From Lewinellaceae bacterium SD302 (GTDB lineage Bacteria; Bacteroidota; Bacteroidia; Chitinophagales; Saprospiraceae): a DNA stretch of 64,000 bases. A program made the position numbers and the translations under genes. Positions 536 to 62,066 of this stretch are shown here, piece by piece. The notes under the pieces are model-generated. The model did no database searches, was not told the origin of the DNA, and saw only the letters and a program-made list of their open reading frames with translations. The stretch spans positions 248,001-312,000 of the forward strand of contig PDLQ01000001.1 of the NCBI GenBank assembly GCA_002591745.1, in the 5' to 3' direction. Within the stretch, counting starts at the first letter, position 1. Each line of letters begins with the position of its first letter.

Positions 536-3136
536 TTAACGGACCACCAATTTATGACGTTGCAACTCGCCATTAGCACGAAGCAGCACGAAGTATACCC
601 CGCTCGGCCAGTCATTGGTATCGAATTGATGGACGGGTCCGTTCATCCGGGCGCTATAAACTACTTGCCCTCCGGAGGAAATTACCGAAAGCTGTCCGCT
701 CAGCAATGATTCGCTTTGCAGATGAACCAGTCCTCCGCTGGGGTTGGGAAAGAGTTGGAAACTATTTTCCAGTACGACTTGCTCGCGGTTATTTACCGCC
801 GTTTCTTCAGAAATGAGTACTACCAGATTCTCGCGGCCACCAAGACTCAGTTCCAGTTGATGATCAGAGAACCCGCCATTTTCATTGATCGTGATGGTAC
901 CCAGGCTTTCATTGTTCAGGAGGTCGGTCAGGAAGTATTCGCCGGCTGATAAAGTAGAAGCACTCAAACTTACGGACGGAGATTCGATGCCTTCGTTGCT
1001 GAAATTGGAAAGTACAAGGGCAGCCTCTTGCTGATGTACCCGGGCAAAAGTAAGTAACTGCTCATCGTTGCTGGATACGTCCAGGTAATTCCCTTTTCTC
1101 AGGCTGGGCTGCTCGTTACGGAGGTGGATGTAACGCTTGTACTGGGACAGAATCGAGCCGGGGTCCGACGCCAGCATTGCTACATTGTTAGTCAAAAAAT
1201 TCGGCCCCAGTCCGTACCAGGGGGTAGCGGAAGAAAAACCGGCATTTGCTGCGTCACTCCACTGCATGGGGCGGCGAATGTTGCGGTGGTCACCCGTGCC
1301 GAGCATGCCGAGTTCCTCGCCGTAATAAACGAAGGGTACGCCGGGTAAGGTGAGGTAGATGGCCGCGGCCAGTTTCATTTTGCTTTCGTCGCTGCCCAGA
1401 TTGTTGAAGACCCGATCCATATCGTGATTGGTCAGGAAAGTCCCGTATTGGAGAGCGGGGTAGGAGGCGCGAATCTCATCAATTTGCTGGCGAATGGCCG
1501 TAGGGTTACCACTGTTGACGGCCCCCTGAATATCGCCGGCCAGGTCGAAGTCGAAGCAGGCGTCCAGACGGTCGTTTTGCACGTAGGGGATAATGGATGG
1601 GGTAGAGGACCAGACTTCGCCAATGGAGAAAACATCCGGGTTAGCTGCGTGATAAACGTCGTTGAACTCTTCGAGTAAGGCGAAGGTCTCCGGGGTGTTT
1701 TCGAGAACAGTACCATCTTCAATGAGGTATTTAATGGCGTCTAGCCGATAGCCGTCGACTCCCAGATCAAGCCAGAAATCGGCGACGTTGAACATTTCCG
1801 CTTTTACGTCGGGGTTCTCGTAGTTCAGGTCCGGCATGCCGCTCCAGAAAAGGCCGTAGAAATATTCACCGCTGTTTTGGTGCCAGACGTTTTGCCCCCA
1901 GGGGCCGGGGAAGGCGGGATTGTCTTCGGACCAGATGTACCAGTCGCGAAATTCTGCGCTACCCGCCGCGGATTGGTTGAACCAGGGGTGCTGGCTGCTG
2001 GAATGGTTCAGGACCAGGTCGATGATCACTTTAATGCCTCTGGCGTGGGCGGCATCCAGGAAATCCTGGAAATCCTCCATGCTGCCGTAATCCGGCTCCA
2101 CGGCGTAGTAATCAGTTACGTCGTAGCCGTGGTAGGAAGGTGATTCCATCATCGGCATGAGCCAGATTGCGGTGACGCCGAGGTCAGTGTTCGTTTCCGG
2201 GTCTCCGTCATTAAGGTAGTCCAGGCGCTGGATCGCTCCCTGGAAATCTCCTACTCCGTCACCGTCGCTATCGTTAAAGCTGCGGACAAACATCTGGTAG
2301 AATACGGCGTCGTTCCACCAGTAGGTGTCGTAATCGGTGGCAATGGCGGGGTCACATTCCTGGCAGCTGGCGAAGCAAAAAATGGGAAGGTCAGGGTTGG
2401 TTTCGCCAATGGTAAAGAAACGATTGCTACCACCTACGTCGCCGGGAATCGAACAGTCTCCGGGTACTGTTTCCAGTCCGTCCAGACTATTTCCATTCAC
2501 GAAAAGGTAACGATACTCACCTTCCGGAATGGTCAGTTCTACGGACCAGGTCCCGTCGGCATTTACATCCTGCAATGGTATGCTGGCAGGGTCCCAGTTG
2601 TCTGCGTAGCCAGCGGCTTCCTGAAAATCACCGACCAAGAATACACCCGTTGGGTCAACGGCCACGTCACCCATATTTACGGCAAATCTCACCCGGCCGA
2701 TACAACCATTAAAGGGAACGGCGGGCAATTCCAGGTCGGTTGCACCCACGGTAAATTCACGGTTGTTGGTGTCGCCTACCGAGCAATCAGCCGGAGGGTT
2801 TTCGTCTTGCCCCCAGGCGTTGCCATTAATGAATTTATACTGGTAGGTACCCGCTGGCAGCTCTACGGTAATCTCGTAGATGTTATCTCCGTCTGCATCA
2901 AAAACCTGGGTGGAAGCAGGGCTCCAGTCGTTACCGAGTCCGGCGGCATCCTGGAAATTTCCGGCGATGTGAACACCTGGGTCGGCTACAGTTTCTGCGC
3001 TCATGTCTACGCGTAGAGTCACGCTGGTCTGGGCCCTCAATGACCCATTACTTAAAATGATGATGGCTAACAAAGTAGCAAAGCTGGTAATAATTCGCTT
3101 ACAGAGTTTTTGGGACAGGAGGTTGCTTATGATCAT
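536..3136 (-). CDS. Secreted GH13 alpha-amylase with T9SS sorting domain
   Basis: This 866-residue protein should hydrolyse alpha-1,4-glucans outside the cell. Residues 1-36 are a signal peptide ending SLRAQ. Two similar beta-sandwich modules (about 37-140 and 146-255), each with a VHIAGNFQ or VFLVGDFQ start and a YKFINGN or YLFVNGN end, resemble starch-binding or E-set modules. The GH13 barrel follows: DLVLNHSS near 375, the nucleophile Asp in GYRLDAIKYL near 464, the acid/base Glu in SIGEVWSS near 505 and the third Asp in LTNHDMDR near 571. The C-terminus has LFPNPSGG and ends in HKLVVR, a type A T9SS sorting domain that should carry the enzyme to the surface or medium. No other starch genes are adjacent, so it is not part of a classical Sus locus. 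A copy of the dispersed GCTACTTTG motif lies in the signal-peptide codons. Confidence 0.93.
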   Translation of the reverse strand: MIISNLLSQKLCKRIITSFATLLAIIILSNGSLRAQTSVTLRVDMSAETVADPGVHIAGNFQDAAGLGNDWSPASTQVFDADGDNIYEITVELPAGTYQYKFINGNAWGQDENPPADCSVGDTNNREFTVGATDLELPAVPFNGCIGRVRFAVNMGDVAVDPTGVFLVGDFQEAAGYADNWDPASIPLQDVNADGTWSVELTIPEGEYRYLFVNGNSLDGLETVPGDCSIPGDVGGSNRFFTIGETNPDLPIFCFASCQECDPAIATDYDTYWWNDAVFYQMFVRSFNDSDGDGVGDFQGAIQRLDYLNDGDPETNTDLGVTAIWLMPMMESPSYHGYDVTDYYAVEPDYGSMEDFQDFLDAAHARGIKVIIDLVLNHSSSQHPWFNQSAAGSAEFRDWYIWSEDNPAFPGPWGQNVWHQNSGEYFYGLFWSGMPDLNYENPDVKAEMFNVADFWLDLGVDGYRLDAIKYLIEDGTVLENTPETFALLEEFNDVYHAANPDVFSIGEVWSSTPSIIPYVQNDRLDACFDFDLAGDIQGAVNSGNPTAIRQQIDEIRASYPALQYGTFLTNHDMDRVFNNLGSDESKMKLAAAIYLTLPGVPFVYYGEELGMLGTGDHRNIRRPMQWSDAANAGFSSATPWYGLGPNFLTNNVAMLASDPGSILSQYKRYIHLRNEQPSLRKGNYLDVSSNDEQLLTFARVHQQEAALVLSNFSNEGIESPSVSLSASTLSAGEYFLTDLLNNESLGTITINENGGFSDHQLELSLGGRENLVVLISEETAVNNREQVVLENSFQLFPNPSGGLVHLQSESLLSGQLSVISSGGQVVYSARMNGPVHQFDTNDWPSGVYFVLLRANGELQRHKLVVR
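3065..3083 (-). repeat. GCTACTTTG-family motif copy
   Basis: The plus strand reads GGCTAACAAAGTAGCA, a full-consensus copy. It is translated in the amylase signal peptide as part of SFATLLAI. Confidence 0.75.
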
Positions 3137-3167
3137 CCGGTAAAGGTAAGGAATGAACCTAAGCAGA

Positions 3168-4145
3168 TTACTGAACCTGAGACTTGATATTTTTTAACAA
3201 ATTAGGAACGTTGAAAGTGACCTCTTTAACCCGGCTTTTCAGCTTGCTCAATTTTGTCCTGAAGGCCATATTGTCCAGATTCAACTGATGGGCTGCTGCG
3301 GATGCCGGTTCCAACAACTCTCCAAATCGCTTAATTTGTCTGGCAAAACGATGAAGCGGCTGTGCATTCGGCAGCTTAATGATTTTCGCCAGGCGCGCAG
3401 ACTCATCCTGCATCAGTGCCGTGGTAATCTGGTAGGCCGAGCTGCGAAAAGCACGCGTAATTTCGATTTCTAGATCAATACCCGGCAATAAACGTTCTGC
3501 TTTTTCCATCACCGCATCGAAGCGATTTTCGTTTTCCGTCAGGCCCAATGACGGGTGCTTGGTCAGTATTTGCTCAATGGGCTCAAGGGGTCGATAAATC
3601 TTAGAATGGGCCTCCGTAATTGAGGCGGTGGCTCGTTTAAGATCTTGCATCCATGCTTCGATCCTCGTCAATAACTCATTCAGCTGTTTGTCTAAAATCT
3701 CTTCCGTTGTATGGAGTGGAAGTTGCTCGTTTTTAGCCAACTCCAGGTAGCTGTCCATCCAACCATCCAGTACCGGAGCAGCCATGAAACGGAGGCTTTG
3801 TTCGTTGGGTATTTCATTTTCCAGCCGGCTATATTCAGCAAAGGCATTGTCGACCAATAGGTGAAACCTTTTTTCCTCGTAGCTGGGTAAATGGTACTCC
3901 CGGTCCTCCAGTAGTTTAATTAAGCCTAATGCGCGTCTGTTCAGGCTACGCCGCTCGGTATCCAGCCATTCGTAACTTCTGGTACGGTTCAGTTCCTCAC
4001 GCAGCCAGTTGTTGTGATCGGCCAGCAGCAGGTCCAGGCTTTCCTGATTGTCGGCCAGCAGGTTAAAAGATGCTTTCAGGTAGGCGAGGGCCGGGCCGAG
4101 GTCATCGGTCAGGAGCTGGCGGAATTTGTTGGCCTTGTCTTGCAT
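3168..4145 (-). CDS. Helical protein with EAD11-like N-terminal domain
   Basis: The 325-residue product has no signal peptide and no membrane segment and is predicted almost all alpha-helical. Residues about 15-80 contain ALAYLKASF, then LLADHNNWLREEL and RRSLNRRALGLIKLLED. The layout (a short helix pair, a conserved Asn before a charged helix, then an Arg/Asn-rich helix ending in two leucines) resembles effector-associated domain 11 (EAD11). EAD11 is an adaptor of bacterial NTP-dependent conflict systems that links sensors to effectors. The rest (about 90-325) is helical and not recognised; it has no NACHT, protease or TIR motif. The gene at 34925-37798 has a comparable N-terminus. The family call is by eye. 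The 5' leader carries an unusual hairpin array (4155-4257). Confidence 0.45.
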   Translation of the reverse strand: MQDKANKFRQLLTDDLGPALAYLKASFNLLADNQESLDLLLADHNNWLREELNRTRSYEWLDTERRSLNRRALGLIKLLEDREYHLPSYEEKRFHLLVDNAFAEYSRLENEIPNEQSLRFMAAPVLDGWMDSYLELAKNEQLPLHTTEEILDKQLNELLTRIEAWMQDLKRATASITEAHSKIYRPLEPIEQILTKHPSLGLTENENRFDAVMEKAERLLPGIDLEIEITRAFRSSAYQITTALMQDESARLAKIIKLPNAQPLHRFARQIKRFGELLEPASAAAHQLNLDNMAFRTKLSKLKSRVKEVTFNVPNLLKNIKSQVQ

Positions 4146-4154
4146 GCTTTGTAC

Positions 4155-15662: not shown

Positions 15663-15704
15663 GACTTCAAAGTAGCAGTGTGTAATCGTTGCTACTTTGC
15701 AGTC
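15663..15704. repeat. Inverted pair of GCTACTTTG-family motifs
   Basis: GACTTCAAAGTAGCA (from 15663) and TGCTACTTTGCAGTC (ending 15704) form a 15-bp stem with one mismatch and a 12-base loop. It lies after the stop of the gene at 15725-16342 and before the hydrolase start, both minus strand, where it could end transcription. Confidence 0.75.
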
Positions 15705-15724: not shown

Positions 15725-16342
15725 CTATCTCTTACTAAAATTGAATTTGCGGCCAAAGTGAAATGAGAGGATGGGTAATACACCCGTATTGTAGTCGGTC
15801 AGCAGTGTATACTGTAGGTTCAAGTACCAGCCGGATCGTTTGGTGCCTTTGCGGAATCGCCCGATACCAATGGCAATGGAGGGGGCGTAATAAGTCCGGC
15901 CGGGGAAGAAAACCCTGGAGACTTTATCATCTGCCACTTTATAGGTGGTTGTTAGCATTGAACGGTATAAACCGAGTGGATTGAATTCTACGGAAAGTCC
16001 CCGGCTCTTGTTGTTGACCCTGCGAAGGATAAGACCGGAGTAAGTGAATATCCCGTTTTGGGTTTTGGTGGCGAAGTTCGTGGAATAGCCCAGGCTTCCG
16101 TTCAACAAGAGTTGTCGCTTAATATTCTTTTGTCCCGTCTTTTTTTCCTTGGTCCTGACGCTCTCTTTCCAAAGATATTCCGCGCCGAGGTTAAGACCGC
16201 TGTTGGAGAAGAGGTTGCCAAAGTAGCCAACTTTAAAGTCTGTTCTTTCCGCCAGAGAATTAAATTTTGTCATGTCCTGAGCCGAAAGGGAAGCGACACT
16301 AAACAGGAGAATAGCTACCATGAGGCAGTTTATTGAATTCAT
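15725..16342 (-). CDS. Outer-membrane beta-barrel protein, family unknown
   Basis: The start at 16342 is chosen because MNSINCLMVAILLFSVASLSAQ is a clean signal peptide; an upstream ATG nine codons earlier adds only a polar tail. The 205-residue product consists of short amphipathic strands (VGYFGNLF, LNLGAEYLW, SIAIGIGRF, WYLNLQYTLL, GVLPILSFHFG) and ends near an aromatic residue, as small outer-membrane barrels do. No precise family was recognised. It sits between an AraC-type regulator and a hydrolase lipoprotein on the same strand; a functional link is unproven. Confidence 0.6.
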   Translation of the reverse strand: MNSINCLMVAILLFSVASLSAQDMTKFNSLAERTDFKVGYFGNLFSNSGLNLGAEYLWKESVRTKEKKTGQKNIKRQLLLNGSLGYSTNFATKTQNGIFTYSGLILRRVNNKSRGLSVEFNPLGLYRSMLTTTYKVADDKVSRVFFPGRTYYAPSIAIGIGRFRKGTKRSGWYLNLQYTLLTDYNTGVLPILSFHFGRKFNFSKR

Positions 16343-17744: not shown

Positions 17745-17763
17745 CATTGCTACTTTGTTAGTA
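17745..17763 (+). repeat. GCTACTTTG-family motif copy
   Basis: CATTGCTACTTTGTTAGTA overlaps the presumed TTG start codon of the DUF6428 gene. Confidence 0.7.
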
Positions 17764-18213: not shown

Positions 18214-18233
18214 AAGCAAAATATAACCATGTT

Positions 18234-19336: not shown

Positions 19337-19641
19337 TCCGGATGATTAGTCGATTTATGGCTAACAAAGTAGCTATGTTAGTATAGCTTGTTAGTGCCCT
19401 TGATTTTTTGAACTTGCTTGCTGAGAGTTGGGTTAAGAAACTCCTATAGATATTCAAGATTCTGGATTTCAGGTTCGAGACTGCAGATTTTATTCAACCT
19501 CCTCCCAAGATCGTAAAATGCTAGGGCAAGGAGGTTGGTTGACAAGCCAAGTGAACCATGTCACGCTAAAACCACCTTTTACCTCATCCGAGAACCTTTG
19601 TCACCTCTATTTGTCTTGTTTTAAACTTTACTACTCAACAC
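19337..19641. other. Intergenic region upstream of the response regulator
   Basis: No gene is seen in about 305 bases. It contains a GCTACTTTG-family copy (19359-19377) and an inverted repeat CAACCTCCT / AGGAGGTTG (19495-19503 and 19529-19537), a perfect 9-bp stem with a 25-base loop. Confidence 0.5.
19359..19377 (-). repeat. GCTACTTTG-family motif copy
   Basis: The plus strand reads GGCTAACAAAGTAGCTATG, directly after the decayed aquaporin. Confidence 0.7.
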
Positions 19642-20451: not shown

Positions 20452-22545
20452 ATGCAAGGACTTACTTTTGAATACCCCGTCTGGTACCTTATCCTCTGCG
20501 GATTGGTCGGTCTGGCCGTTGCCACCGGACTTTATTACCGGGATACTACTTTCAAGGAACAACCCAATTGGCTACGCTGGTTAATGGGCGGATTACGCTT
20601 CCTGGCCTATTCAGCCATTGCCGCTTTGCTGCTGACACCGTTGCTGAAGTATTTGCAGACGGAACAGCAGGACCCCATCATCGTACTTGTACAGGATGCC
20701 TCCGAAAGTATCGGTATGGCTACGGATACGGTTACTTATCGACAGGCCTGGAACCAACTGAATAGTGAACTAGGGAGTAACTATGAAGTAGTGAATTATC
20801 GTTTTGGCGATGTTTTTCGCGAAGCAGAAAGTGATGAAAGCTTCGGCGACAAACGCACCAACCTGAGTGACGCCCTGAGGGAAATCAGCGATCTTTACAG
20901 TAATCAGAATCTCGGTGCGGTTATACTCGCTTCCGACGGAATTTATAACGAAGGGGCCAATCCGGCTTACAGCCAATTGCAGATCAAAGCACCGATCTAT
21001 ACCGTGGGATTGGGAGATACTACCCAACGGCGAGACTTATTGATCCGCCGGGTCTTTCACAATAAAATCGCTTACCTGGACGACAGTTTTAGCTTGCAGG
21101 TTGATGTCAGTGCCCGCAACGCTGCCGGATCAGCTACCCGCCTGTCCGTCAGTCGCATTACGACCAGTGGCCGACAGGAATTACAGACCGAAACCATCAA
21201 TATCGAAGACAATGATTTCTTCACCACCCGGGAAGTTATCATCGAAGCCGATCAGCCCGGCGTTCAGCGTTACCGCATCTCAGTTTCGGGTATAGGCGAC
21301 GAGGTAAGCCAAGCCAATAACAGTCGAGACATTTTCGTAGACATACTCGATGCCCGCCAGCAGATCCTTATTCTGGCCAACGCTCCTCATCCGGACGTTA
21401 CGGCCATCAAGCAGGCATTGCTTTCTGGAAAAAACAACGAAGTTTCAGTTGATTACGCCGCCAAGTTCGCGGGCAATCTGCGCGACTATGATTTGGTGAT
21501 TTTACATGATCTGCCCTCATCAAAGAATAGCATCAGTCCGTTGCTTGCTCAGGCTCGTGATTTGAAGAAACCACTTTGGTTCATAATCGGGGAAGCTACT
21601 GTGCCCGGTCAATTCAATGCAGCTCAGGACTTATTGAGTTACCGTAAACAGGGTAATAGTGGTAATCAGGTCAGTGGGAAAGTGCTTCCTGGTTTTGGCC
21701 TGTTTACGCTAAGCGATGAACTTCGATCCGGTTTGGGGCAGTTTCCACCGGTCAATGCACCTTTCGGAGAATTCCAGGCCAAGGCCGGAGCCGACGTCAT
21801 GCTCATGCAGCGAGTCGGTCGGGTAGATACCGAATACCCCTTACTGACCCTCGGAGAAAGCAATGGTGCCCGCACCGGCGTACTCTCCGCTACGGGTATC
21901 TGGCAATGGCGCCTTTTCGATTATCTCGACCGTGGCAACCATGAACTCTATAACGAACTGATCAGCCAGGTCACCCAGTACCTCAGTATACAGGAAGATA
22001 AGAGGCGTTTCCGGGTCAGTGTGGCCGAGAGCCTGTTCGATGAGAACGAACCCGTTCAACTCGACGCTGAACTCTACAATAATAGCTACGAACTCATCAA
22101 TGACCCGGATGCGAATATTGTCGTCACGGATGAAGACGGTCGCGACTACAACTATACTTTTACGCGTACCTCCAATGCTTACACCCTCAATGCGGGAATC
22201 CTGCCAGTGGGCAATTACCGCTTCCGAGCGTCTACTTCTCCCAACGGTGAATTATTGACCTATAACGGGCAGTTCAGCGTTCAGAGCGTAGACGTAGAGC
22301 GCTTTGCACTGGAAGCGGATCATGGAATGCTTCGATTGCTGAGCGATCGGTACGGTGGGGAGTTTTTGTTACCCGCTGACCTTGCTACTTTGCCAGTCCA
22401 ACTAGCGGATCGTGGTACGGTGAAACCTATTTTATTCCAGACCGTTACAACCCGTTCCATTATCAACCTGAAGTGGATATTCTTCCTGCTCTTCGGGCTG
22501 TTGGCGGCGGAATGGTTTATGCGGAGATACTTTGGGGGGTACTAA
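20452..22545 (+). CDS. Large vWA-like membrane protein
   Basis: The 697-residue protein has two N-terminal helices (about 10-27 and 43-62, LMGGLRFLAYSAIAALLLTPLL). A von Willebrand A-like segment follows, starting IIVLVQDASESIGMATD, with AVILASDGIYNEG as second motif, then several beta-sandwich parts. One helix near 672-690 (WIFFLLFGLLAAEWFM) closes it. The layout is that of Bacteroidota BatA/DUF4159-neighbour membrane proteins, whose role is unclear. The metal site DxSxS reads DASES, so it is plausibly intact. A GCTACTTTG-family copy lies in the coding sequence at 22381. Confidence 0.65.
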   Translation: MQGLTFEYPVWYLILCGLVGLAVATGLYYRDTTFKEQPNWLRWLMGGLRFLAYSAIAALLLTPLLKYLQTEQQDPIIVLVQDASESIGMATDTVTYRQAWNQLNSELGSNYEVVNYRFGDVFREAESDESFGDKRTNLSDALREISDLYSNQNLGAVILASDGIYNEGANPAYSQLQIKAPIYTVGLGDTTQRRDLLIRRVFHNKIAYLDDSFSLQVDVSARNAAGSATRLSVSRITTSGRQELQTETINIEDNDFFTTREVIIEADQPGVQRYRISVSGIGDEVSQANNSRDIFVDILDARQQILILANAPHPDVTAIKQALLSGKNNEVSVDYAAKFAGNLRDYDLVILHDLPSSKNSISPLLAQARDLKKPLWFIIGEATVPGQFNAAQDLLSYRKQGNSGNQVSGKVLPGFGLFTLSDELRSGLGQFPPVNAPFGEFQAKAGADVMLMQRVGRVDTEYPLLTLGESNGARTGVLSATGIWQWRLFDYLDRGNHELYNELISQVTQYLSIQEDKRRFRVSVAESLFDENEPVQLDAELYNNSYELINDPDANIVVTDEDGRDYNYTFTRTSNAYTLNAGILPVGNYRFRASTSPNGELLTYNGQFSVQSVDVERFALEADHGMLRLLSDRYGGEFLLPADLATLPVQLADRGTVKPILFQTVTTRSIINLKWIFFLLFGLLAAEWFMRRYFGGY
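22381..22399 (+). repeat. GCTACTTTG-family copy inside a gene
   Basis: CTTGCTACTTTGCCAGTCC, translated as LATLPV near the C-terminal end of the vWA-like protein. Confidence 0.6.
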
Positions 22546-28606: not shown

Positions 28607-29640
28607 CGGCCGATGCTTTTTCGGTTTTGCCGCAGCAAAAGCCAAATGAAAAAGGGGGCGCCTACCATTGCTGTCAGGATACCGATGGGAAGCTCGGCCG
28701 GCGCTACGATGGTGCGCGCCAGGGAATCTGCCAATAGCAAAAAGGTCGCTCCCAATAATAAAGAAAGTAAAATCAGCTTGCGGTAATCCGTTCCGACCCG
28801 GAGCCGGATCAAATGAGGGATAATTAGTCCCACAAAACCGATTAGTCCGGTGACGGAGATACAGGCACCGATGATCAGAGCCGTCCATATTACGATTCTG
28901 CGCTTGATCTTTGCTACTTTGAAGCCCAAATGAATGGCTTCCCTTTCACCCAGTAAAAAAGCATTCAATGCCAAGGCATCTCGTTGAAGGAAGTAACTTC
29001 CAATCAGGGTCACCGGAGCGCACACGGCCACCTGCAACCAGTTTGCGCCGGCCAGGCTGCCCAAGGTCCAAAAAGTAATATCCCGCAGTTGCTCTTCGTC
29101 GGATTTGTAAATCAGTAAACCTGTAAAAGCACCAGCCAGAGCAGTGATGGCAATACCCGCCAACAGCATAGTGGTTACTTCCATTCGTCCCCGCCGATTG
29201 GCGATGGAATAAACCATCCAGGTGGTGAGCAAAGCGCCTGCGAAGGCGGATATGCTGACGCTGAGTTGCAGTATCGCCGGTGGCAACCAACTGAATAAAG
29301 TAACGCTAAAAACCAGGGCCAGTACGGCGAAGAGCATAGCTCCGCTGGTGATCCCGATAAATGTCGGCTCGGCCAGGGGGTTACGAAAGAGCCCCTGTAC
29401 CGCCGCTCCGGTTGTCGCCAGTCCGCCACCGACTACAATGGCCAATACAACGCGGGGCAGCCGTACTTGCCAGACCAGAAAGTTCTCCATTCGGTCGGCC
29501 CGGCCGAGCAAGGCGTCGATCAGGGTCGCCAGGTTCAATTCATAGGCGCCCACGACCACGCTGATACCCGCCGCGATGAGCAGCAGTAGAGCCAAAGGTA
29601 ACCAGGCCGGGATCGTATGTTTTTTGGGGAGAACGGACAT
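28603..29640 (-). CDS. hmuU: FecCD-family haem importer permease
   Basis: A 345-residue inner-membrane permease with about ten helices, of the BtuC/HmuU family. Characteristic stretches are LPRVVLAIVVGGGLATTGAA, RNPLAEPTFIGITSGA and the C-terminal GFVGLIIPHLIRLRVGTDYR (the coupling region), followed by PAELPIGILTAMVGAPFFIW. It overlaps hmuV by four bases and starts 3 bases after hmuT. A GCTACTTTG-family copy falls in its codons at 28911. Confidence 0.93.
   Translation of the reverse strand: MSVLPKKHTIPAWLPLALLLLIAAGISVVVGAYELNLATLIDALLGRADRMENFLVWQVRLPRVVLAIVVGGGLATTGAAVQGLFRNPLAEPTFIGITSGAMLFAVLALVFSVTLFSWLPPAILQLSVSISAFAGALLTTWMVYSIANRRGRMEVTTMLLAGIAITALAGAFTGLLIYKSDEEQLRDITFWTLGSLAGANWLQVAVCAPVTLIGSYFLQRDALALNAFLLGEREAIHLGFKVAKIKRRIVIWTALIIGACISVTGLIGFVGLIIPHLIRLRVGTDYRKLILLSLLLGATFLLLADSLARTIVAPAELPIGILTAMVGAPFFIWLLLRQNRKSIGR
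28911..28926 (+). repeat. GCTACTTTG-family copy inside hmuU
   Basis: TTGCTACTTTGAAGCC, translated on the minus strand as FKVAK. Confidence 0.5.
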
Positions 29641-29643
29641 GGT

Positions 29644-30621
29644 TTATTTGTTGCTGGCAATCAATTTTTCGGCCAATTCCGTCGCCGCTTGTCCGGCCCT
29701 GGGGCCAAAGCCAAGTAAATACTGTCCATCCATGGCGACCACATTATCGTTCTGGTAGGCTGGCGTTTGTTCGATACCGGGCACCTGACCGAGCCCTTGT
29801 TTACCGTCCAGACTGGCCAGCCCACTGCTGAACATCAGGATAACGTCAGGTGCGGCGGCCACTAAGCTCTCGGGCGTAATGGCCTCGAAATCATCAAAAG
29901 TGGTGATGGCGTTCTCTCCACCGGCCAACTCGATCATCCGGGCTGCTTCGGTGGATTTTCCGGCCACCAGGATTCGTCCGGTACCGCGGGCGTAGATGAA
30001 GAGCACCTTGGTTTTTTTTGCATTAGCCACCTTACGGTCCAAAACACTTTCGAGCTTTTGACGATCCGCAGCCATAGCATTTTCGAGCAACTGTATTTGC
30101 TGCTGGGGAATGTCCAAATGAGCGGCCAGTTGGTTTGCCATTTCAGCCGAATTTTCCAAAGTGGAAACAACTTCGATGGGTAGCACTTCGATGCCGGCTG
30201 ACCGCAGTTTTTGCAGTCCCTCTTTACTGGCATCCTCAGCGGTGACGAAAATCTTGTTCGGCCCCAGCGCCAGGATAGCTTCGACGTTCAACTGACTAAC
30301 GTGACCCAGCTTGGGCAGGGTATCCGTAGCGGCGGCAGGGTAGGTGCTGGTTACGTCCACCCCCACGATCCGGTCGCCATAACCCAGGCTGTAGAGTAAT
30401 TCGGTGATCGTACCGTTGAGCGAAATGATTTTCTCCTGGGCAACTGTAGAATCCGGTGAATCAGCTGGCTCATCACCGGAAGACACACAACCGACCAGCA
30501 ATGCCAGGGGGATAAAAATCGCTATGAATCGCAGCTGACAAAGCCGGTCGGAGAAAGTGTTGGTTTTGACTAACAAAGTAGCAGAGTTGGTTGAGAAGTA
30601 AATGTTGGAGTGAAGTAGCAT
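29644..30621 (-). CDS. hmuT: Haem-binding lipoprotein of the ABC importer
   Basis: A 325-residue substrate-binding protein. A lipoprotein signal (IPLALLVGCVSS, Cys near residue 45) is preceded by about 25 unusual residues, so the true start may be internal. The mature part has KIISLNGTITELLYSLGYGD, VGVDVTSTYPAAATDTLPKL and GHVSQLNVEAILALGPNKI, the usual opening of HmuT/BtuF-type proteins. It would deliver haem to HmuU. It starts 4 bases after the HmuY-like gene. A GCTACTTTG-family copy lies in the first codons (30568-30586). Confidence 0.88.
   Translation of the reverse strand: MLLHSNIYFSTNSATLLVKTNTFSDRLCQLRFIAIFIPLALLVGCVSSGDEPADSPDSTVAQEKIISLNGTITELLYSLGYGDRIVGVDVTSTYPAAATDTLPKLGHVSQLNVEAILALGPNKIFVTAEDASKEGLQKLRSAGIEVLPIEVVSTLENSAEMANQLAAHLDIPQQQIQLLENAMAADRQKLESVLDRKVANAKKTKVLFIYARGTGRILVAGKSTEAARMIELAGGENAITTFDDFEAITPESLVAAAPDVILMFSSGLASLDGKQGLGQVPGIEQTPAYQNDNVVAMDGQYLLGFGPRAGQAATELAEKLIASNK
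30568..30586 (-). repeat. GCTACTTTG-family motif copy
   Basis: The plus strand reads GACTAACAAAGTAGCAGAG, in the extended N-terminal codons of hmuT. Confidence 0.65.
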
Positions 30622-34738: not shown

Positions 34739-34756
34739 GGCTTCAAAGTAGCCGTG
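34739..34756 (-). repeat. GCTACTTTG-family motif copy
   Basis: The plus strand reads GGCTTCAAAGTAGCCGTG, 20 bases after the DUF2306 stop. A partial opposite copy, GGCTACTTTACTTTC, follows at 34811. Confidence 0.65.
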
Positions 34757-37798: not shown

Positions 37799-37836
37799 AA
37801 AAAAGCCGGCTACTTTGAAGCAAGTAACCGGCCCTT
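37799..37836. terminator. Terminator hairpin shared by convergent genes
   Basis: GCCGG and CCGGC bracket TACTTTGAAGCAAGTAA, with an A-run on the plus strand side (T-run for the minus gene). It contains the core GCTACTTTG at 37809-37817, so one repeat copy serves as the terminator stem. Confidence 0.65.
37809..37821 (+). repeat. GCTACTTTG-family copy in a terminator
   Basis: GCTACTTTGAAGC between convergent genes. Confidence 0.6.
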
Positions 37837-40449: not shown

Positions 40450-40468
40450 GGCTAGCAAAGTAGCAAGG
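40450..40468 (-). repeat. GCTACTTTG-family motif copy
   Basis: The plus strand reads GGCTAGCAAAGTAGCAAGG, in the 49-base spacer between two minus-strand genes. Confidence 0.7.
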
Positions 40469-41211: not shown

Positions 41212-41230
41212 CATTGCTACTTTGAAGAAC
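41212..41230 (+). repeat. GCTACTTTG-family motif copy
   Basis: CATTGCTACTTTGAAGAAC, in the divergent spacer between the gene ending upstream at 41172 and the phosphoesterase. Confidence 0.7.
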
Positions 41231-44058: not shown

Positions 44059-44079
44059 ATGGCTGGCAAAGTAGCAAGG
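44059..44079 (-). repeat. GCTACTTTG-family motif copy
   Basis: The plus strand reads GGCTGGCAAAGTAGCAAGG (from 44061), 14 bases after the phosphoesterase stop. Confidence 0.7.
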
Positions 44080-48420: not shown

Positions 48421-49416
48421 ATGCTTCGAGGGTTTGTAATCGGGTTGCTGCTTTTACTGGGTGTAGTAGCTTTGTCATTACGTGGCAACACTGCTACTTT
48501 GTCAGCCAAAAAGCATGGCCAAATCGATCTAAAGCGCTCCGCTTGTGTCGCGGATACCGTTATCGCCCTCTGGCCGGATGATCGTTTTCCCTGCGCTAAT
48601 GAGTTGACCTCGGAAGAATGGACAGATGAGCAAATGGGGCTGATGCAAATAAAGATTCATCGTCCCGAGCTCCACGTTTTTAGGCCGTTCGGTGCAGGAA
48701 AAAAGGACCAGGCCGTGATGATTTGCCCCGGTGGTGGGTATTATCTGCACGCCTGGGAATGGGAAGGTGCGGCAGTCGCCCGGGCGTTCAACCAAAGGGG
48801 AATCACCGCCGCAGTACTGAAATACCGGCTACCGCACTGGGAAACGGAGGATTGCCGAAGTCAGGTTGCCCTCGCTGATGCCCAGCGCGGAATGCAACTA
48901 TTGCGCCATCTGGCGGAAACCGAAAACTTTGATCCGGCAAAGATCGGCATTATGGGCTTTTCGGCGGGCGGACATCTGGCGGCATCCGCTTCGGTGTACA
49001 CCCTGGCGGCCGACCCCGGTCACAAGGAAGATAAAGTCGCTCGCCAAAGCAGCCGGCCCGATTTTAGTATCCTCGTCTATCCGGTAATCAGCATGGATAC
49101 GCTGGGGACCGGCCACGCCGGATCACGAAGGAACCTGATCGGTCGGTCACCGTCGGATGAAATGGTCAAATACTTCAGTCTGGAGAAACAGGTAAACGAG
49201 CGCACTCCGCCTACCATATTGTTTCACGCCGCCGATGACGGAGTCGTCCCGGTACGTAACTCCCTGGACTATTTTTCAGCCCTCAACGCCGCCAAAGTTC
49301 CCGCCAGTTTGAGGGTGTACGCAAAGGGTGGCCACGGCTTCAGTTTTGCTAACGCCTTTACCGGCGACGTCAGCAATTGGTGGCAGAGCTTACTACGCTG
49401 GCTGGAAGATTTGTAA
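48421..49416 (+). CDS. Alpha/beta hydrolase esterase
   Basis: A 331-residue protein with one N-terminal hydrophobic segment (GLLLLLGVVALSLRG), probably a signal anchor or secreted form. It has the esterase motifs MICPGGGYYLHAWEWEGAAV (oxyanion hole), GFSAGGHLAAS (nucleophile Ser), ILFHAADDGVVPVRNS (Asp) and AKGGHGFSF (His). This set is found in acetylxylan-esterase-like enzymes. A GCTACTTTG-family copy lies in the first codons (48489-48507). Confidence 0.86.
   Translation: MLRGFVIGLLLLLGVVALSLRGNTATLSAKKHGQIDLKRSACVADTVIALWPDDRFPCANELTSEEWTDEQMGLMQIKIHRPELHVFRPFGAGKKDQAVMICPGGGYYLHAWEWEGAAVARAFNQRGITAAVLKYRLPHWETEDCRSQVALADAQRGMQLLRHLAETENFDPAKIGIMGFSAGGHLAASASVYTLAADPGHKEDKVARQSSRPDFSILVYPVISMDTLGTGHAGSRRNLIGRSPSDEMVKYFSLEKQVNERTPPTILFHAADDGVVPVRNSLDYFSALNAAKVPASLRVYAKGGHGFSFANAFTGDVSNWWQSLLRWLEDL
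48489..48507 (+). repeat. GCTACTTTG-family motif copy
   Basis: CACTGCTACTTTGTCAGCC, translated as NTATLSAK near the N-terminus of the esterase. Confidence 0.65.
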
Positions 49417-49432: not shown

Positions 49433-50464
49433 ATGTTAGCAGTGAACTTAACCTCCGATACCGTTACCCGACCGACTCCGGCCATGCGCAAAGCCATGTT
49501 CGATGCGGAGGTTGGTGACGACGTTTTCCGCAAAGACCCTACCGTAAACCGACTCGAAGCTATGGCCGCCGAGCGTTTTGGAATGGAGGCCGCCCTGTTC
49601 TGCCCTAGCGGCACCATGACCAATCAGCTGGCCATCAAAATGCATACCCAGCCGCTGGATGAGGTGATCTGCGAAGAGAAAAGCCACGTTTACCAGTACG
49701 AAGGCGGTGTGTACGGTTTGATTAGCAACGTAGCAATGAATCTGGTTAAAGGAAAAGCCGGGAAGCTTCTGAGCGGACAGATAGCAGCAGCCGTAAAACC
49801 CCGGGCGGACTGGCTGCCGGTCAGTAAACTGGTGGTGCTGGAAAATACTTGCAACAAAGGCGGCGGAACCATCTATACCCATGATGAAGCTTCCAGTTTA
49901 GTGCGAGAAGCCCGGGAGCATAAGCTGGCCTGCCACCTGGACGGTGCCCGACTTTTCAACGCCCTGGTCGAAACCGGAGAATCCACGGTAGATTGGGGGG
50001 CAACTTTCGACACGATCAGTATTTGCCTGAGCAAAGGACTGGGGGCGCCCGTGGGTAGTCTTTTACTCGGGCCGGATGAATTGGTCCAAAGGGCCAGACG
50101 CTTCCGAAAAAACCTGGGTGGCGGCATGCGCCAGGCCGGATTTCTGGCAGCAGCGGGTATCTATGCCCTCGAAAATCACGTGGATCGACTGGCCGAAGAC
50201 AACGCCCGCGCCAAGCGACTGGGAGAAGCCATCAAAGAATTGCCTTACGTGACTAACCTTATTCCACCACAGTCCAATATTCTCATCTTCGACCTTAAGG
50301 AAGAGTCCGCAGACAGCTTTCTGGCGCGTTTAAAAGACAAGGGTGTTGAAGCCGTTCCCTTTGGCCCCAAAACCATACGTTTCACCACCCACCTCGACGT
50401 CAACGACGCCATGATCGATCACGTCATTCAAGTAATGAATTCTTTTGCCGATGCATCCCGCTAA
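49433..50464 (+). CDS. ltaE: Low-specificity L-threonine aldolase
   Basis: PLP enzyme splitting threonine (and allo-threonine) into glycine and acetaldehyde. The ATG at 49433 (MLAVNLTSDTVTRPTP) is chosen because the upstream frame translates esterase codons. Of 343 residues, GDDVFRKDPTVNRLEAMAAE, ALFCPSGTMTNQLAIK and CLSKGLGAPVGSLLLG (PLP-binding Lys) are characteristic. It begins 16 bases after the esterase stop and overlaps rlmF by 14 bases. Confidence 0.92.
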   Translation: MLAVNLTSDTVTRPTPAMRKAMFDAEVGDDVFRKDPTVNRLEAMAAERFGMEAALFCPSGTMTNQLAIKMHTQPLDEVICEEKSHVYQYEGGVYGLISNVAMNLVKGKAGKLLSGQIAAAVKPRADWLPVSKLVVLENTCNKGGGTIYTHDEASSLVREAREHKLACHLDGARLFNALVETGESTVDWGATFDTISICLSKGLGAPVGSLLLGPDELVQRARRFRKNLGGGMRQAGFLAAAGIYALENHVDRLAEDNARAKRLGEAIKELPYVTNLIPPQSNILIFDLKEESADSFLARLKDKGVEAVPFGPKTIRFTTHLDVNDAMIDHVIQVMNSFADASR

Positions 50465-52314: not shown

Positions 52315-52334
52315 CTACATTGGTCTACATTGGT
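52315..52334 (+). repeat. 10-bp tandem duplication CTACATTGGT
   Basis: Two exact copies lie side by side in the first helix of the choline transporter gene and shift its frame. Confidence 0.9.
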
Positions 52335-53695
52335 GCGGTTATCGCTAAACGCAAGCAGGGTGGTGAATCTGATACCGATGGCGTCATGCTGGCCGGGCGT
52401 GGTTTGCCGGCTTACATCGCCATCTTCACCATGAGCGCAACCTGGGTGGGTGGGGGCTTCATCAACGGTACGGCCGAATACACCGCCAGTAGCGGACTGG
52501 TTTGGGTACAGGCACCCTGGGGTTACGCGTTGAGCCTGGTAATCGGTGGACTGTTTTTCGCCCGCATTATGCGTCGCCGGCGTTACCGGACCATGCTGGA
52601 TCCTTTAGAAGAACGCTACGGAAAGAAAATGACCGCCTTGCTTTTCCTGCCCGCCCTCACCGGTGAGTTGTTCTGGACCGCAGCCATCCTGACGGCACTG
52701 GGCGCGACCTTTTCAACGGTGCTGGGTATCGATATCGAGACATCCATTCTGCTATCGGCTACCGTAGCCATTGCCTATACCGCCCTGGGTGGTCTTTGGG
52801 CCGTTGCCCTGACCGACGTAGTGCAGTTAATCATTTTATTTGTTGGTCTGGCAATCATCTTGCCTTTTGCATTGGAGTACACCGGTGGCTTATCCGCCAC
52901 CTGGGCCAAGTATCAGGATCAGTTCGGTGCGGCGGCCAGTCCTTTCCCCAGCAGAGAAGCTCTGGGTGACAGTTACTGGACCTGGTGGGATTACGCCTTG
53001 CTGCTCGTCTTCGGAGGCATTCCCTGGCAAGTGTATTTTCAGCGGGTATTGGCTGCTAAATCGGAGCGGGTGGCCGTTTGGCTCAGTATTCTCGCCGGGG
53101 TGATCTGTTTGCTGGCCGCCTTTGCGCCAACGGTCATCGGTATGATCAGTGCCACCGTAGATTGGACGGCCCTGGGCACCACGGCTCCTCCCGAAGCTTC
53201 CGCCACATTACCCTGGGTGGTCAAAGAACTGACCCCGCCGCTGGTGGGGATGATCGGCCTGGGAGCAGTAGCTGCTGCGGTAATGTCGTCAGTGGATTCT
53301 TCGGTGCTTTCTGCCAGCAGTATGGGCATCTGGAACGTTTACCGGCCCCTGGTTCAGCCGGATATTTCGGATAGTAATCTGGCCCGGCTCATCAAGCGCT
53401 GTATCTGGATCGTCGGCGTAGCGGCCACCCTCGTTGCCTTCAAGGTGCAGAGTGTATACGAATTGTGGTTTCTGTGCTCCGATTTCGTGTATTGCCTTTT
53501 ATTCCCGGCCTTGGTCTGTGCGCTGTTCCTGCCATTTGCTAATAAGTATGGGGCTTTGGCCGGCTTCCTGGTCGCAGCTTTCCTGCGGTTCGGTGGGGGA
53601 GAGAGCACTTTGGGTATCCCTGCCTTCTTGCCCTACCCAACGGATTTTCCTTTCCGAACTTTGGCGATGGTCAGCGGATTATCAGTAATAATTTT

Positions 53696-53714
53696 GGCTA
53701 GCAAAGTAGCAGCG
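53696..53714 (-). repeat. GCTACTTTG-family copy at a gene end
   Basis: The plus strand reads GGCTAGCAAAGTAGCAGCG, translated as LASKVAAL in the last codons of the choline transporter. Confidence 0.65.
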
Positions 53715-53953
53715 TTACCGGGTAAACGTTGATGCTTATTTGCTATGCTACGCAAGAACAAAGTGCAAGCATAACCGAAAGAGTCGAAGGGGTTTGTGAG
53801 GGCTTCACCACTATGTCGGGAGAATTTTAAACTCATTATTACGGGAATGGCAATAGTTCGTAAAAACCGGGGGAGAGAAACCCGCCGTCCGCAATCTTTC
53901 GAACTGGTAATTTCAAATTAACGCAGCAATATTTCCGCTACTTTAATTTCCCG

Positions 53954-55480: not shown

Positions 55481-55499
55481 CACTGCTACTTTGTTAGCC
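55481..55499 (+). repeat. GCTACTTTG-family motif copy
   Basis: CACTGCTACTTTGTTAGCC, intergenic between the rhlE terminator and the fad promoter. Confidence 0.75.
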
Positions 55500-55646: not shown

Positions 55647-58031
55647 ATGAAGAGAATTAAGAAAGTTGCTGTACTCGGCTCCGGTGTAATGGGCTCCGGG
55701 ATCGCCTGTCACTTTGCGAATATCGGCCTGGAGGTGTTGATGTTGGATATCCTGCCCCGTGAGATGGCACCGGATGAAACCAATCCCAGGGTCCGGAACA
55801 GCATGGCGCAAAAGGCCCTGACTGCCACGATCAAATCAAAGCCCGCCCCGCTGTATGACAAAAAATTTGCCAGCCGAATCACGGTAGGCAATTTTACCGA
55901 TGATATGCATCGACTGAAGGACTACGACTGGATCATCGAAGTGGTCGTAGAACGACTGGACATTAAGCAAAAAGTACTGGCGCAAGTCGATGAGCACCGC
56001 AAAGCCGGTAGCCTGGTGACGACCAATACTTCGGGTATTCCCATCAATATGATCGCCAAAGGCTTGAGCGAAGACATGCGCGCTCATTTCTGCGGCACTC
56101 ACTTTTTCAATCCACCGCGCTACCTGCGGCTCTTCGAAATCATCCCCGGACCGGATACCAAACCGGAAGTCATTGACTTCTTTATGGATTATGGCGACCG
56201 TTTCCTGGGCAAGACCACAGTACTGGCCAAGGATACGCCTGCCTTCATCGGAAACCGGATCGGCGTCTACGCCATGGCTAAAGTTTACCAGCTGACGGAT
56301 GAGCTGGGACTGAAGATTCATACGGTCGACAAGCTGACCGGTCCGGCTTTAGGGCGCCCTAAGACCGGTACCTTCCGCCTGGGTGACCTGGTGGGCCACG
56401 ACACGGCCGCTCACGTTATGACCGGTGTGCGAGAAAACGCGCCAAGTGACGAGCAAGCCGCGGTGATGGAGATTCCACAATACTTCAACTTTCTGTTGGA
56501 GAAGAAATTTCTGGGTAATAAATCCGGCCAGGGCTTCTACAAAAAGATAACCGGCGAGGATGGCAAGCGGCAGATCCTGGGGCTGAACCTGAAGACACTG
56601 GAATACGAAGCCTCCGAGCGGGAAGATGTTCCCAGTCTGAAGACGGCCAAGCAGATCGATGACCTGACCCTGCGGGTTAGAGCCTTATTCAAAGCCGAAG
56701 ATAAAGGTGGTGAACTGGTACGTCGTTCTTTAGCGGGGCTCTTTGCCTACGCCAGCAACCGGATTCCGGAAATCAGTGATAACCTATACAGCATTGACGA
56801 CGCCCTACGAGCCGGTTTCGCCTGGGAGATGGGCCCTTTCCAATACTGGGATGCTATTGGTATTCAGGCCGGTATCGAAGCCTCTGAAGCGGACGGAAAC
56901 ACCGTAGCCGACTGGGTGAAAGAAATGTTAGCCGCCGGCAACGAAAGCTTTTACAAGACCGAGGATGGTAAGCTGCTTTACTACGATATTGACAGTAAAA
57001 GTTACCTGGAAAAACCGGGGGCTTCTGATTTCATCATTCTGGATCGTTACCGCGATCGCAAGCCGGTTTACCAGAACAGCGAAGTTACCCTGCATGATAT
57101 TAATGACGGGGTACTCTGTCTGGAATTCACCAGCGCCCACAATAGTATCGGCGAGGGTGTATTGCGCGGAATGGAGGACTGTATCACTTTGGCCGAAGAG
57201 GGTGACTGGCGCGGCATGGTGATTGGTAACAACGCCACGAACTTTAGCGTCGGGGCCAATCTGATGATGATTGCCCAGCTGGCTTACGCCCAGGAGTTCG
57301 AGGAACTGAATATGGCCGTTAACCTGTTTCAGCAGAGCGTGATGCGCTGTCGTTACAGCAGTATTCCGGTCATTGCAGCTACCCAGGGCTACGTCTTTGG
57401 CGGCGGCTGTGAAACACTGATGCACTGCGACGGTGCCGCCGTGGCAGCGGAAAGTTACATCGGCCTGGTAGAAGCTGGTATCGGGGTGATCCCCGGCGGT
57501 GGCGGAACCAAGGAAATGGCCCTGCGCGCGAGTGATCAATACTTTGAAGGTGACGTGATGATTCCGACGCTGATCGAAAAATTCAAAGCGATTGCTATGG
57601 CCCAGGTTTCCACCAGTGGCTGGGAAGGGTTCAACAACGGCACCTTACTCAAGCACCGCGATAAGATTGTGGTCAACAAGGATCGCAACATCGCCGAAGC
57701 CAAAGAAATGGCTATCGCAATGGCCGACGACGGTTACGTCATGCCCATCAAGCGGGAAGACATTACCGTACTCGGTCAGGGTGGAATGGCAGCCCTCTAC
57801 GCGGCTGCTAACGAGCTAAAGCGCGGACACTACGCCAGCGATCATGACATTAAAATTGCCCGTAAGATTGCCCACGTGCTTTGTGGTGGACCGCTCAGTG
57901 GTACCCAGAAAGTCAGTGAGCAATATCTGCTGGACATCGAACGGGAGGCATTCCTGAGTCTGGTGGGTGAGCAGAAGACACTGGAACGGATTCAGCACAT
58001 GCTGCAGACGAATAAGCCGTTGCGGAATTAA
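55647..58031 (+). CDS. fadN: 3-Hydroxyacyl-CoA dehydrogenase / enoyl-CoA hydratase fusion
   Basis: A 794-residue bifunctional enzyme of beta-oxidation. The NAD-binding dehydrogenase is N-terminal (VAVLGSGVMGSGIACHFANI near residue 7, then THFFNPPRYLRLFEIIPGP), and the enoyl-CoA hydratase fold is C-terminal (CLEFTSAHNSIGEG, VIAATQGYVFGGGCETLMHC, EAGIGVIPGGGGTKEMALRA). The order matches Bacillus FadN, reversed relative to Escherichia FadB. It hydrates enoyl-CoA and oxidises the product. fadA follows 119 bases later, as in the fadN-fadA pair. Confidence 0.93.
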   Translation: MKRIKKVAVLGSGVMGSGIACHFANIGLEVLMLDILPREMAPDETNPRVRNSMAQKALTATIKSKPAPLYDKKFASRITVGNFTDDMHRLKDYDWIIEVVVERLDIKQKVLAQVDEHRKAGSLVTTNTSGIPINMIAKGLSEDMRAHFCGTHFFNPPRYLRLFEIIPGPDTKPEVIDFFMDYGDRFLGKTTVLAKDTPAFIGNRIGVYAMAKVYQLTDELGLKIHTVDKLTGPALGRPKTGTFRLGDLVGHDTAAHVMTGVRENAPSDEQAAVMEIPQYFNFLLEKKFLGNKSGQGFYKKITGEDGKRQILGLNLKTLEYEASEREDVPSLKTAKQIDDLTLRVRALFKAEDKGGELVRRSLAGLFAYASNRIPEISDNLYSIDDALRAGFAWEMGPFQYWDAIGIQAGIEASEADGNTVADWVKEMLAAGNESFYKTEDGKLLYYDIDSKSYLEKPGASDFIILDRYRDRKPVYQNSEVTLHDINDGVLCLEFTSAHNSIGEGVLRGMEDCITLAEEGDWRGMVIGNNATNFSVGANLMMIAQLAYAQEFEELNMAVNLFQQSVMRCRYSSIPVIAATQGYVFGGGCETLMHCDGAAVAAESYIGLVEAGIGVIPGGGGTKEMALRASDQYFEGDVMIPTLIEKFKAIAMAQVSTSGWEGFNNGTLLKHRDKIVVNKDRNIAEAKEMAIAMADDGYVMPIKREDITVLGQGGMAALYAAANELKRGHYASDHDIKIARKIAHVLCGGPLSGTQKVSEQYLLDIEREAFLSLVGEQKTLERIQHMLQTNKPLRN

Positions 58032-59747: not shown

Positions 59748-59761
59748 AGCAGAACGAGCGA

Positions 59762-60608: not shown

Positions 60609-60629
60609 CTCGCCGAAGGGCGAGTTTTT
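60609..60629 (+). other. Hairpin CTCGCC-GAAG-GGCGAG with T-run
   Basis: A perfect 6-bp stem and TTTTT on the plus strand, in the tpiA / LysM-CAP spacer. No plus-strand gene ends upstream in this spacer, so its role as a terminator is unclear. Confidence 0.4.
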
Positions 60630-60721
60630 GAATCAGCGAATTTGGAAGGATACATTGATGAAGTATTAAAATTCATCATCTTCCCCTTCAGTGTTTTCCG
60701 TGTAAATAATCGCATATCCGG

Positions 60722-61942: not shown

Positions 61943-62013
61943 ATATGGGTGTTTAAAAGACCTAATATAGCGTTTTATTCGTCGTGGTGCATGAAGCTCG
62001 CAGCTTATTGATC

Positions 62014-62066
62014 GCATGGCTACTTTGTTAGCCGGTAATAAAATTTTGACTGCCAAAGTAGCAATG
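62014..62066. repeat. Inverted pair of GCTACTTTG-family motifs
   Basis: GCATGGCTACTTTGTTAGCC (62014-62033) and GACTGCCAAAGTAGCAATG (62048-62066) form a long imperfect stem with a 14-base AT-rich loop. It lies between two minus-strand genes. Confidence 0.75.

What the first reader, a model, noticed from the sequence alone, without database searches (positions are those of the whole stretch)
3065..62066. Dispersed GCTACTTTG motif: about 19 copies in 64 kb
By eye I counted 18 exact GCTACTTTG/CAAAGTAGC cores and one variant (9757). Simple arithmetic gives 0.5 expected (128,000 starts / 262,144). Most copies extend to about CATTGCTACTTTGTTAGCC with small variations (YTAGCC, GAAGYC). Copies occur in both orientations (10 and 9), mostly in intergenic DNA, sometimes inside the first or last codons of genes. 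This combination resembles DNA uptake sequences (over-represented, double as hairpins and terminators, tolerated in genes) or REP-like elements, or a binding site for a dedicated protein. I know of no such motif described for this phylum.
Basis: partly seen in the sequence, partly recalled or inferred. Interest (0 to 1): 0.82.

Follow-up and report, generated by a model that had tools for sequence, protein, structure and literature searches.

The report
Strand-spaced genome tag in one Neolewinella
One marine bacterium carries about 1,500 copies of a short DNA tag that looks like the labels some bacteria use to recognise their own DNA, but its copies keep a few thousand bases apart on each strand separately, a pattern that is not yet explained.

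Summary
GCTACTTTG occurs 19 times in the window (0.41 expected) and 1,533 times in its 5.48 Mb genome (reversed-word control 80). Around a nearly invariant 9-base core lies a 24-30 base asymmetric motif, RRCAYT-GCTACTTTG-N(Y)AGYC-MAAA. Core+NNAGYC has 792 copies here and 0-3 in each other genome of a 398-genome family sample (with 20 other Neolewinella) and a 394-genome phylum sample. It is denser between genes, but 254 of 581 validated copies lie in genes; 35 of 44 alignable in-gene copies show no insertion at the motif. This resembles DNA uptake sequences; REP elements, promoters and terminators fit poorly. The new finding is strand-specific exclusion: same-orientation copies are almost absent within 1 kb (3 pairs; 69 under orientation shuffling) and scarce to about 3 kb, while opposite-orientation copies sit side by side; all 77 intergenic regions with two copies hold one of each. 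No secretin, no pilin over cut-off and no convincing pilus ATPase was found, so a standard uptake sequence is doubtful. Best reading: a self-DNA tag read on one strand. Function is inferred, not shown.

The parts
1179..1187 (+). variant copy GCTACATTG with motif flanks, inside gene 536-3136 (antisense)
3071..3079 (-). exact core with full flanks (TTAGCC), near the start of gene 536-3136, sense
15668..15676 (-). exact copy, intergenic; left member of a divergent inverted pair 23 bp apart
15691..15699 (+). exact copy, intergenic; right member of the same inverted pair
16219..16227 (-). exact 9-mer that fails the flank score, in a gene; chance or degenerate
17749..17757 (+). exact copy, intergenic
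19365..19373 (-). exact copy, intergenic
22384..22392 (+). exact copy in gene 20452-22545, sense, residues ATLP
28913..28921 (+). exact copy in gene 28603-29640, antisense, residues FKVA
30574..30582 (-). exact copy near the start of gene 29644-30621, sense
34744..34752 (-). exact copy, intergenic
37809..37817 (+). exact 9-mer that fails the flank score; chance or degenerate
40456..40464 (-). exact copy, intergenic
41216..41224 (+). exact copy, intergenic
44067..44075 (-). exact copy, intergenic
48493..48501 (+). exact copy near the start of gene 48421-49416, sense
49726..49734 (-). variant copy GCTACGTTG with flanks, in gene 49433-50464
53702..53710 (-). exact copy near the end of gene 52320-53732, antisense
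55485..55493 (+). exact copy, intergenic
62019..62027 (+). exact copy, intergenic by my gene caller; left member of a convergent inverted pair 35 bp apart
62054..62062 (-). exact copy, intergenic by my gene caller; right member of the same pair

Best explanation
A species-specific self-DNA tag that has accumulated genome-wide, as DNA uptake sequences do, but that is read on one strand. Proposed mechanism (inferred): a DNA-recognition protein of this lineage favours single strands carrying RRCAYT-GCTACTTTG-N(Y)AGYC-MAAA during uptake or recombination of DNA from kin. Copies arise mainly by base changes where sequence is least constrained and spread because tagged strands are recombined in more often. 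Once a strand has a copy within a typical tract of about 3 kb, another on that strand adds nothing, so same-strand copies exclude one another, while the other strand is a separate pool with its own series. Shown: abundance, restriction to this genome among those sampled, asymmetry, in-place origin of most alignable in-gene copies, strand-specific exclusion. Inferred: the protein, the uptake or recombination step, and the drive.
For: 1,533 copies, 770/763 by strand. Background level in the 20 other genus genomes, also with up to 3 mismatches, and 0-3 copies of core+NNAGYC in each other genome of the family and phylum samples. Core nearly invariant: 54 one-mismatch cores have motif-like flanks, against 94% of 562 exact words. 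Same-orientation validated pairs: 3 against 42.8 expected below 500 bp, 0 against 42.7 at 500-1000, back to 1.0 at 3.5-4 kb. Orientation shuffling with positions fixed: 3 against 69 (sd 6) below 1 kb, 0 of 2000 shuffles as low; 200 control words had a same-orientation share of 0.41 or more below 2 kb, the motif 0.10. 77 of 77 two-copy intergenic regions hold opposite orientations. 35 of 44 alignable in-gene copies without insertion overlapping the motif; one made wholly by synonymous changes. The three largest gaps hold defence-like and efflux genes among those examined. ComEC in 21 of 21. Motif strand slightly less structured than its complement, by 0.71 kcal/mol, core included.
Against: No receptor or uptake pore found: secretin 0 of 21; pilins none over cut-off; the T2SSE ATPase model gives only partial matches (G000: 24.9 bits, just at the cut-off, over 83 of 370 positions). 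Competence in this genus is untested, and ComEC is equally present in relatives without the motif. [quoted passage not shown] Orientation is not free of gene context: within 150 bp upstream of starts it is same-sense 133 to 62, and divergent regions hold 26 of 28 pairs as minus-plus, which the model does not predict. In-gene copies sit at gapped places more than control positions (30 of 44 gap-free, control 86%; 12 of 44 with extra residues nearby), and two carry 8-9 residue insertions. The island observation covers parts of three gaps and has no control.
Confidence: 0.42

Rival explanations
1. A standard, orientation-blind DNA uptake sequence of the USS/DUS kind in a member of Bacteroidota, spread by uptake bias.
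For: Copy number, about one per 3.6 kb; 9-base core with graded flanks and an A-rich 3' side; even spacing, gap CV 0.79 against 1.05 in a class-matched null; preferred reading frames; defence-like and efflux genes in the largest gaps.
Against: Uptake in Haemophilus did not depend on motif orientation (PMC1939737, passages), so saturation should act on both orientations; here opposite copies cluster (42 and 70 pairs below 500 bp, 21.4 expected each) while same-orientation copies exclude (3 against 42.8). No secretin, no pilins over cut-off. Lowest intergenic density in convergent DNA.
Confidence: 0.22
2. A polar signal read by a DNA-tracking enzyme approaching from one side, as Chi is read by RecBCD/AddAB, used to protect own DNA or start recombination.
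For: Such a reader makes the two orientations independent at one place (inference). PDDEXK_1 nuclease-domain proteins are present in 21 of 21 genus genomes, two in G000; calling them AddA/AddB-like is by length and recall.
Against: E. coli Chi in 350 kb shows the opposite pattern, clustering on the same strand (30 pairs below 1 kb, 11.6 expected). Chi sites are short (recalled), this motif is 24 bases or more. The nuclease is shared with relatives that lack the motif.
Confidence: 0.13
3. A binding site of a chromosome-organising or other DNA-binding protein acting genome-wide.
For: Asymmetric long site, even spacing, position preference at gene edges and in divergent regions.
Against: No strong strand bias on the 12 fetched pieces (the most skewed is 40 to 28); the motif rewrites protein-coding sequence, costly for a structural mark; strand-specific exclusion is not predicted.
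Confidence: 0.12
4. A mobile short repeat (REP/RAYT or similar) inserted about 1,500 times, with close direct copies lost by deletion.
For: Inverted pairs; two in-gene copies coincide with 8-9 residue insertions; deletion between direct repeats would remove close same-orientation pairs.
Against: 35 of 44 in-gene copies without insertion at the motif; one Y1_Tnp match in G000 (28.9 bits, over the cut-off), 0-7 in relatives; two random copies share a median of only 11 identical bases in a row, little for deletion across 1-3 kb; variants are excluded as well, 12 same against 44 opposite.
Confidence: 0.06
5. A promoter, terminator or RNA element.
For: 2- to 4.6-fold enrichment within 150 bp upstream of starts, same-sense 133 to 62; 2.3- to 5-fold enrichment in the first 100 bp after gene ends. 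This last point was added on rechecking and raises this rival from 0.03 to 0.05.
Against: 130 sense and 124 antisense copies inside genes; lowest intergenic density in convergent regions; balanced orientation between tandem genes (40/40 and 58/54).
Confidence: 0.05

Closest known systems
Uptake signal sequence (USS) of Pasteurellaceae
   Same: 9-base core, flanking AT-tracts (PMC7811141 passages), about 1,500 copies, both orientations, more non-coding copies than expected, reported even spacing (PMC1939737 passages), bias to gene ends (PMC2346458 part 1 of 3)
   Different: USS uptake is orientation-independent and starts with a type IV pilus machine; 109 close USS pairs in one genome are overlapping inverted repeats, usually at gene ends as terminators (PMC7811141 section 19). 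Here no secretin and no pilins over cut-off, strand-specific exclusion, lowest intergenic density in convergent regions, one species only
DNA uptake sequence (DUS) of Neisseriaceae
   Same: Abundant self-tag; its spacing is linked there to conversion-tract length (PMC2397512 passages)
   Different: DUS occurs as dialects within Neisseriaceae and its receptor is ComP (PMC3630211 and PMC3868556, search listing), a minor pilin; neither is met here
Chi sites (RecBCD/AddAB)
   Same: Asymmetric, read from one side (recalled), dispersed in both orientations
   Different: Short (recalled), and in 350 kb of E. coli clustered on the same strand
HIP1 of cyanobacteria
   Same: Very abundant, lineage-restricted short motif of unsettled function (PMC4390886, search listing)
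   Different: HIP1 is an 8-base palindrome linked to methyltransferases; this motif is long and asymmetric
REP elements / RAYT
   Same: Hundreds of short dispersed copies, inverted pairs
   Different: No RAYT expansion; most alignable in-gene copies without insertion

Membership tests
DNA uptake sequences (USS/DUS) | Strong genome-wide over-representation of a short motif in both orientations | tested here: met
   1,533 copies, control 80
DNA uptake sequences (USS/DUS) | Enhances DNA uptake by the cell | not testable with these tools
   needs an uptake or transformation assay
DNA uptake sequences (USS/DUS) | Type IV pilus/secretin uptake machine with a minor-pilin receptor | tested here: not met
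   Secretin 0 of 21 genomes; N_methyl none over cut-off, one sub-threshold hit in G016; T2SSE only partial matches, 11 of 21 at or just over the cut-off, covering about 83 of 370 positions. Profile searches only; a divergent machine could be missed
DNA uptake sequences (USS/DUS) | Inner-membrane DNA channel ComEC present | tested here: met
   21 of 21, G000:C59:85144-85959; not specific, relatives have it too
DNA uptake sequences (USS/DUS) | Spacing independent of orientation | tested here: not met
   strand-specific exclusion; that USS or DUS spacing lacks it is inferred from orientation-independent uptake and was not measured here
DNA uptake sequences (USS/DUS) | Shared with related species of the genus or family | tested here: not met
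DNA uptake sequences (USS/DUS) | Depleted in recently acquired DNA | tested here: inconclusive
   three largest gaps; 9 of 13, 3 of 11 and 3 of 8 listed genes examined; no control set
REP/RAYT | Cognate Y1 (RAYT) transposase expanded or specific to this genome | tested here: not met
   one match (28.9 bits), relatives 0-7
REP/RAYT | Copies are insertions | tested here: not met
   no insertion at the motif in 35 of 44, 1-5 residues in 7, 8-9 in 2
Chi | Recognised by RecBCD/AddAB, stimulates recombination | not testable with these tools
   only PDDEXK_1 presence checked
Chi | Same-strand spacing like known Chi | tested here: not met
   E. coli Chi clusters on one strand, 89 sites in 350 kb
Replichore-polar motifs (KOPS and the like) | Skewed orientation over long chromosome arms | tested here: not met
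   roughly balanced on the 12 fetched pieces, 275 plus and 287 minus, most skewed 40 to 28

The most novel reading that the evidence does not exclude
A new kind of genome-wide tag: a roughly 24-base signal that arose within one species, is read on single strands (or by a strand-tracking machine), and has filled each DNA strand independently until saturated at one copy per about 7 kb with a 2-3 kb same-strand exclusion zone, for self-DNA recognition in a bacterium without type IV pili.
Probability: 0.35. Interest if true: 0.92.

Novelty: new variant of a known kind. Interest (0 to 1): 0.8.

Why it matters
The uptake sequences in the papers seen here come from Pasteurellaceae and Neisseriaceae, which take up DNA with type IV pili. 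A comparable signal in Bacteroidota, in one species of a genus in which no pilus machinery was detected, would be an independent origin and a natural test of how such signals start. Function becomes testable by simple donor-DNA assays and protein capture.

Tried and rejected
K-mer scan of genus relatives for a motif of their own: 13 of 20 relatives had enough sequence (seven with 60-80 kb, six with 20 kb). Top words were inspected in ten of them and were local tandem arrays, protein repeats or common coding words; no dispersed motif was seen. This does not exclude a weaker one.

Dialects within three mismatches in the genus: none; in all 20 relatives the reversed-word control was higher. Phage carriage: four viral contigs with one copy each, taken as chance.

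Terminator, promoter and replication-polarity readings: judged poor, with the caveats that orientation near starts is biased and that copies are also enriched just after gene ends. Deletion between direct repeats as sole cause of the exclusion: thought unlikely. Chi as direct analogue: the E. coli yardstick went against it.

Papers. None of the listings showed this motif as a bacterial genome repeat (one search lists 15 of 417 papers that contain the 9 letters, so it proves little) or an uptake sequence in Bacteroidota, beyond a k-mer table in PMC7965970 (section 16) whose top words are A/T-rich. These searches cover open-licence papers only. Karlin's work on even spacing was seen only as cited in PMC1939737.
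Full report
What was checked. GCTACTTTG occurs 19 times in the 64 kb window against 0.41 expected, and 770 + 763 times in the 5,478,864-base genome against 43 + 37 for the reversed word. The genome belongs to Neolewinella: a window protein (55647-58031) is 78-80% identical to proteins of four named Neolewinella species, though 58% to its match in N. persica, and two members of the same held genus have first contigs of exactly the lengths of named N. litorea and N. marina contigs (G012 1,374,567 and G016 1,354,473).

The motif. In 225 exact copies from 773 kb the core is followed by N-Y-A-G-Y-C (159 copies) or by one base, mostly A, then A-G-Y-C (61; 5 fit neither), then A-rich DNA, and preceded by RRC[AT]YT. 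Weak preferences reach about 20 bases each way. In 1.97 Mb (12 pieces, 562 exact copies, fetched, counted) a flank score passes 94% of exact words; of 591 one-mismatch words 54 have motif-like flanks (3 expected), 45 of them changed at core position 6 or 8. Exact copies that pass plus these variants give 581 validated copies. The score was built from the same copies, so it checks consistency and is not independent.

Distribution among organisms. In the relatives search the 20 other genus genomes have 23-81 copies of the 9-mer, about control level; some genomes further off exceed their reversed-word control mildly (G037 228 against 118, G068 127 against 27). Extended motif with up to three mismatches: 1,222 here, 8-34 in the 20 relatives, where the control is higher in all 20. 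Core+NNAGYC: 792 here; 0-3 in each of the others of 398 family genomes (103 of 398 have any match) and of 394 phylum genomes (56 of 394; the two samples overlap slightly).

Where copies lie. With my own simple gene caller (1,406 genes, 86.6% coding; start sites uncertain), 254 validated copies are in genes (130 sense, 124 antisense; 0.149 per kb) and 327 between genes (1.24 per kb). Density is highest between divergent genes (111 in 60.4 kb) and lowest between convergent ones (24 in 35.6 kb, still above coding DNA). Enrichment is 3.5- to 4.6-fold from -150 to -25 of starts and 2.3- to 5-fold in the first 100 bp after gene ends. Within 150 bp upstream of starts the motif runs with the gene 133 to 62.

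How copies arose. An earlier smaller test gave 11 of 13 gap-free. Codon alignments show making by base changes, one wholly synonymous, and a copy beside the P-loop of MiaA aligns ungapped with the two solved MiaA chains shown. So most alignable in-gene copies are not inserted elements, though some may be.

Strand-specific spacing. Overall gaps are more even than a class-matched null (225 copies; CV 0.79 against 1.05, 0 of 500), while the number of neighbours within 200 bp, both orientations together, equals that null (20 against 21.5), so opposite pairs take the place of missing same-orientation ones. Same-orientation pairs of validated copies number 3 (42.8 expected) below 500 bp, 0 (42.7) at 500-1000, 6 (42.6) at 1-1.5 kb, and reach expectation at 3.5-4 kb; convergent and divergent pairs below 500 bp number 42 and 70 (21.4 expected each), then run at 0.5-1.0 of expectation to 2.5 kb. 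With positions fixed and orientations shuffled, 3 against 69 below 1 kb and 22 against 113 below 2 kb, 0 of 2000 shuffles as low; 200 control 7-mers of similar number had a same-orientation share below 2 kb of 0.41 or more (mean 0.54), the motif 0.10. Of 19 exact same-orientation pairs below 1.5 kb, 13 include a word without motif flanks. Intergenic regions of 30 bp or more hold at most two copies, and all 77 with two hold opposite orientations. Same-strand gaps of exact words average 7.0 and 6.7 kb with CV 0.57 and 0.63 and a tail to 33 kb, as for random placement with an exclusion zone rather than fixed spacing.

Interpretation. Abundance, in-place origin and the content of the largest gaps fit a tag spread by preferential transfer, as proposed for USS and DUS. 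In those gaps I examined 9 of 13, 3 of 11 and 3 of 8 listed genes: DrmD-like and restriction-like helicases below curated cut-offs, a TOTE-domain helicase and an RND efflux pair; a metal-type efflux set with a P-type ATPase; a type I restriction set with a CHAT protein. Efflux genes need not be recent arrivals, and no control gaps were examined. Orientation-blind uptake does not predict exclusion between same-orientation copies only. A reader of single strands, or one moving along DNA, would. Known Chi does not show it in E. coli, and I could not test USS or DUS genomes. The machine is unknown: ComEC 21 of 21, a PDDEXK_1 nuclease 21 of 21, no secretin, no pilins over cut-off, partial ATPase matches only.

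Literature. PMC1939737 (passages) reports orientation-independent uptake and cites even spacing. PMC7811141 (passages and section 19) reports close inverted USS pairs and no gain in uptake from two. PMC2346458 (part 1 of 3) reports biases toward gene ends. PMC2397512 (passages) links DUS spacing to conversion tracts. PMC7965970 (passages and section 16) shows own-DNA preference in Riemerella columbina, a member of Flavobacteriaceae, and lists only A/T-rich words. The searches found no uptake sequence described in Bacteroidota; this is a statement about those searches.

Noticed in passing
L149, L150, L144, L151, L145 (genus relatives G019, G020, G014, G004, G015): Intergenic-looking DNA of several Neolewinella relatives holds local arrays of short degenerate units, different in each species (for example CTACCGCCTA, CTAGTTCCTA, ACTACAGAACT).
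   Followed up: partly
L168:19490-19965 (G017), L157:14800-14920 (G009): Repeated AATCCGCGAAAATCCGTG-type units in two relatives; origin unknown.
   Followed up: no
G000:C60:29350-54372 (L205, L206): A 25.6 kb motif-free stretch with a DrmD-like helicase, a TOTE-domain helicase, a ResIII protein and a retron-Eco8-effector-like ATPase beside an RND efflux pair; looks like a defence island.
   Followed up: partly
window 18204-19162: Adjacent ORFs that look, by eye from the translations and from recall, like an ArsR-type regulator and an arsenate-reductase-like phosphatase; not searched.
   Followed up: no
divergent intergenic regions of G000: 26 of 28 two-copy divergent regions have the order minus-plus, each copy turning its A-rich side to its gene; not explained.
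   Followed up: partly
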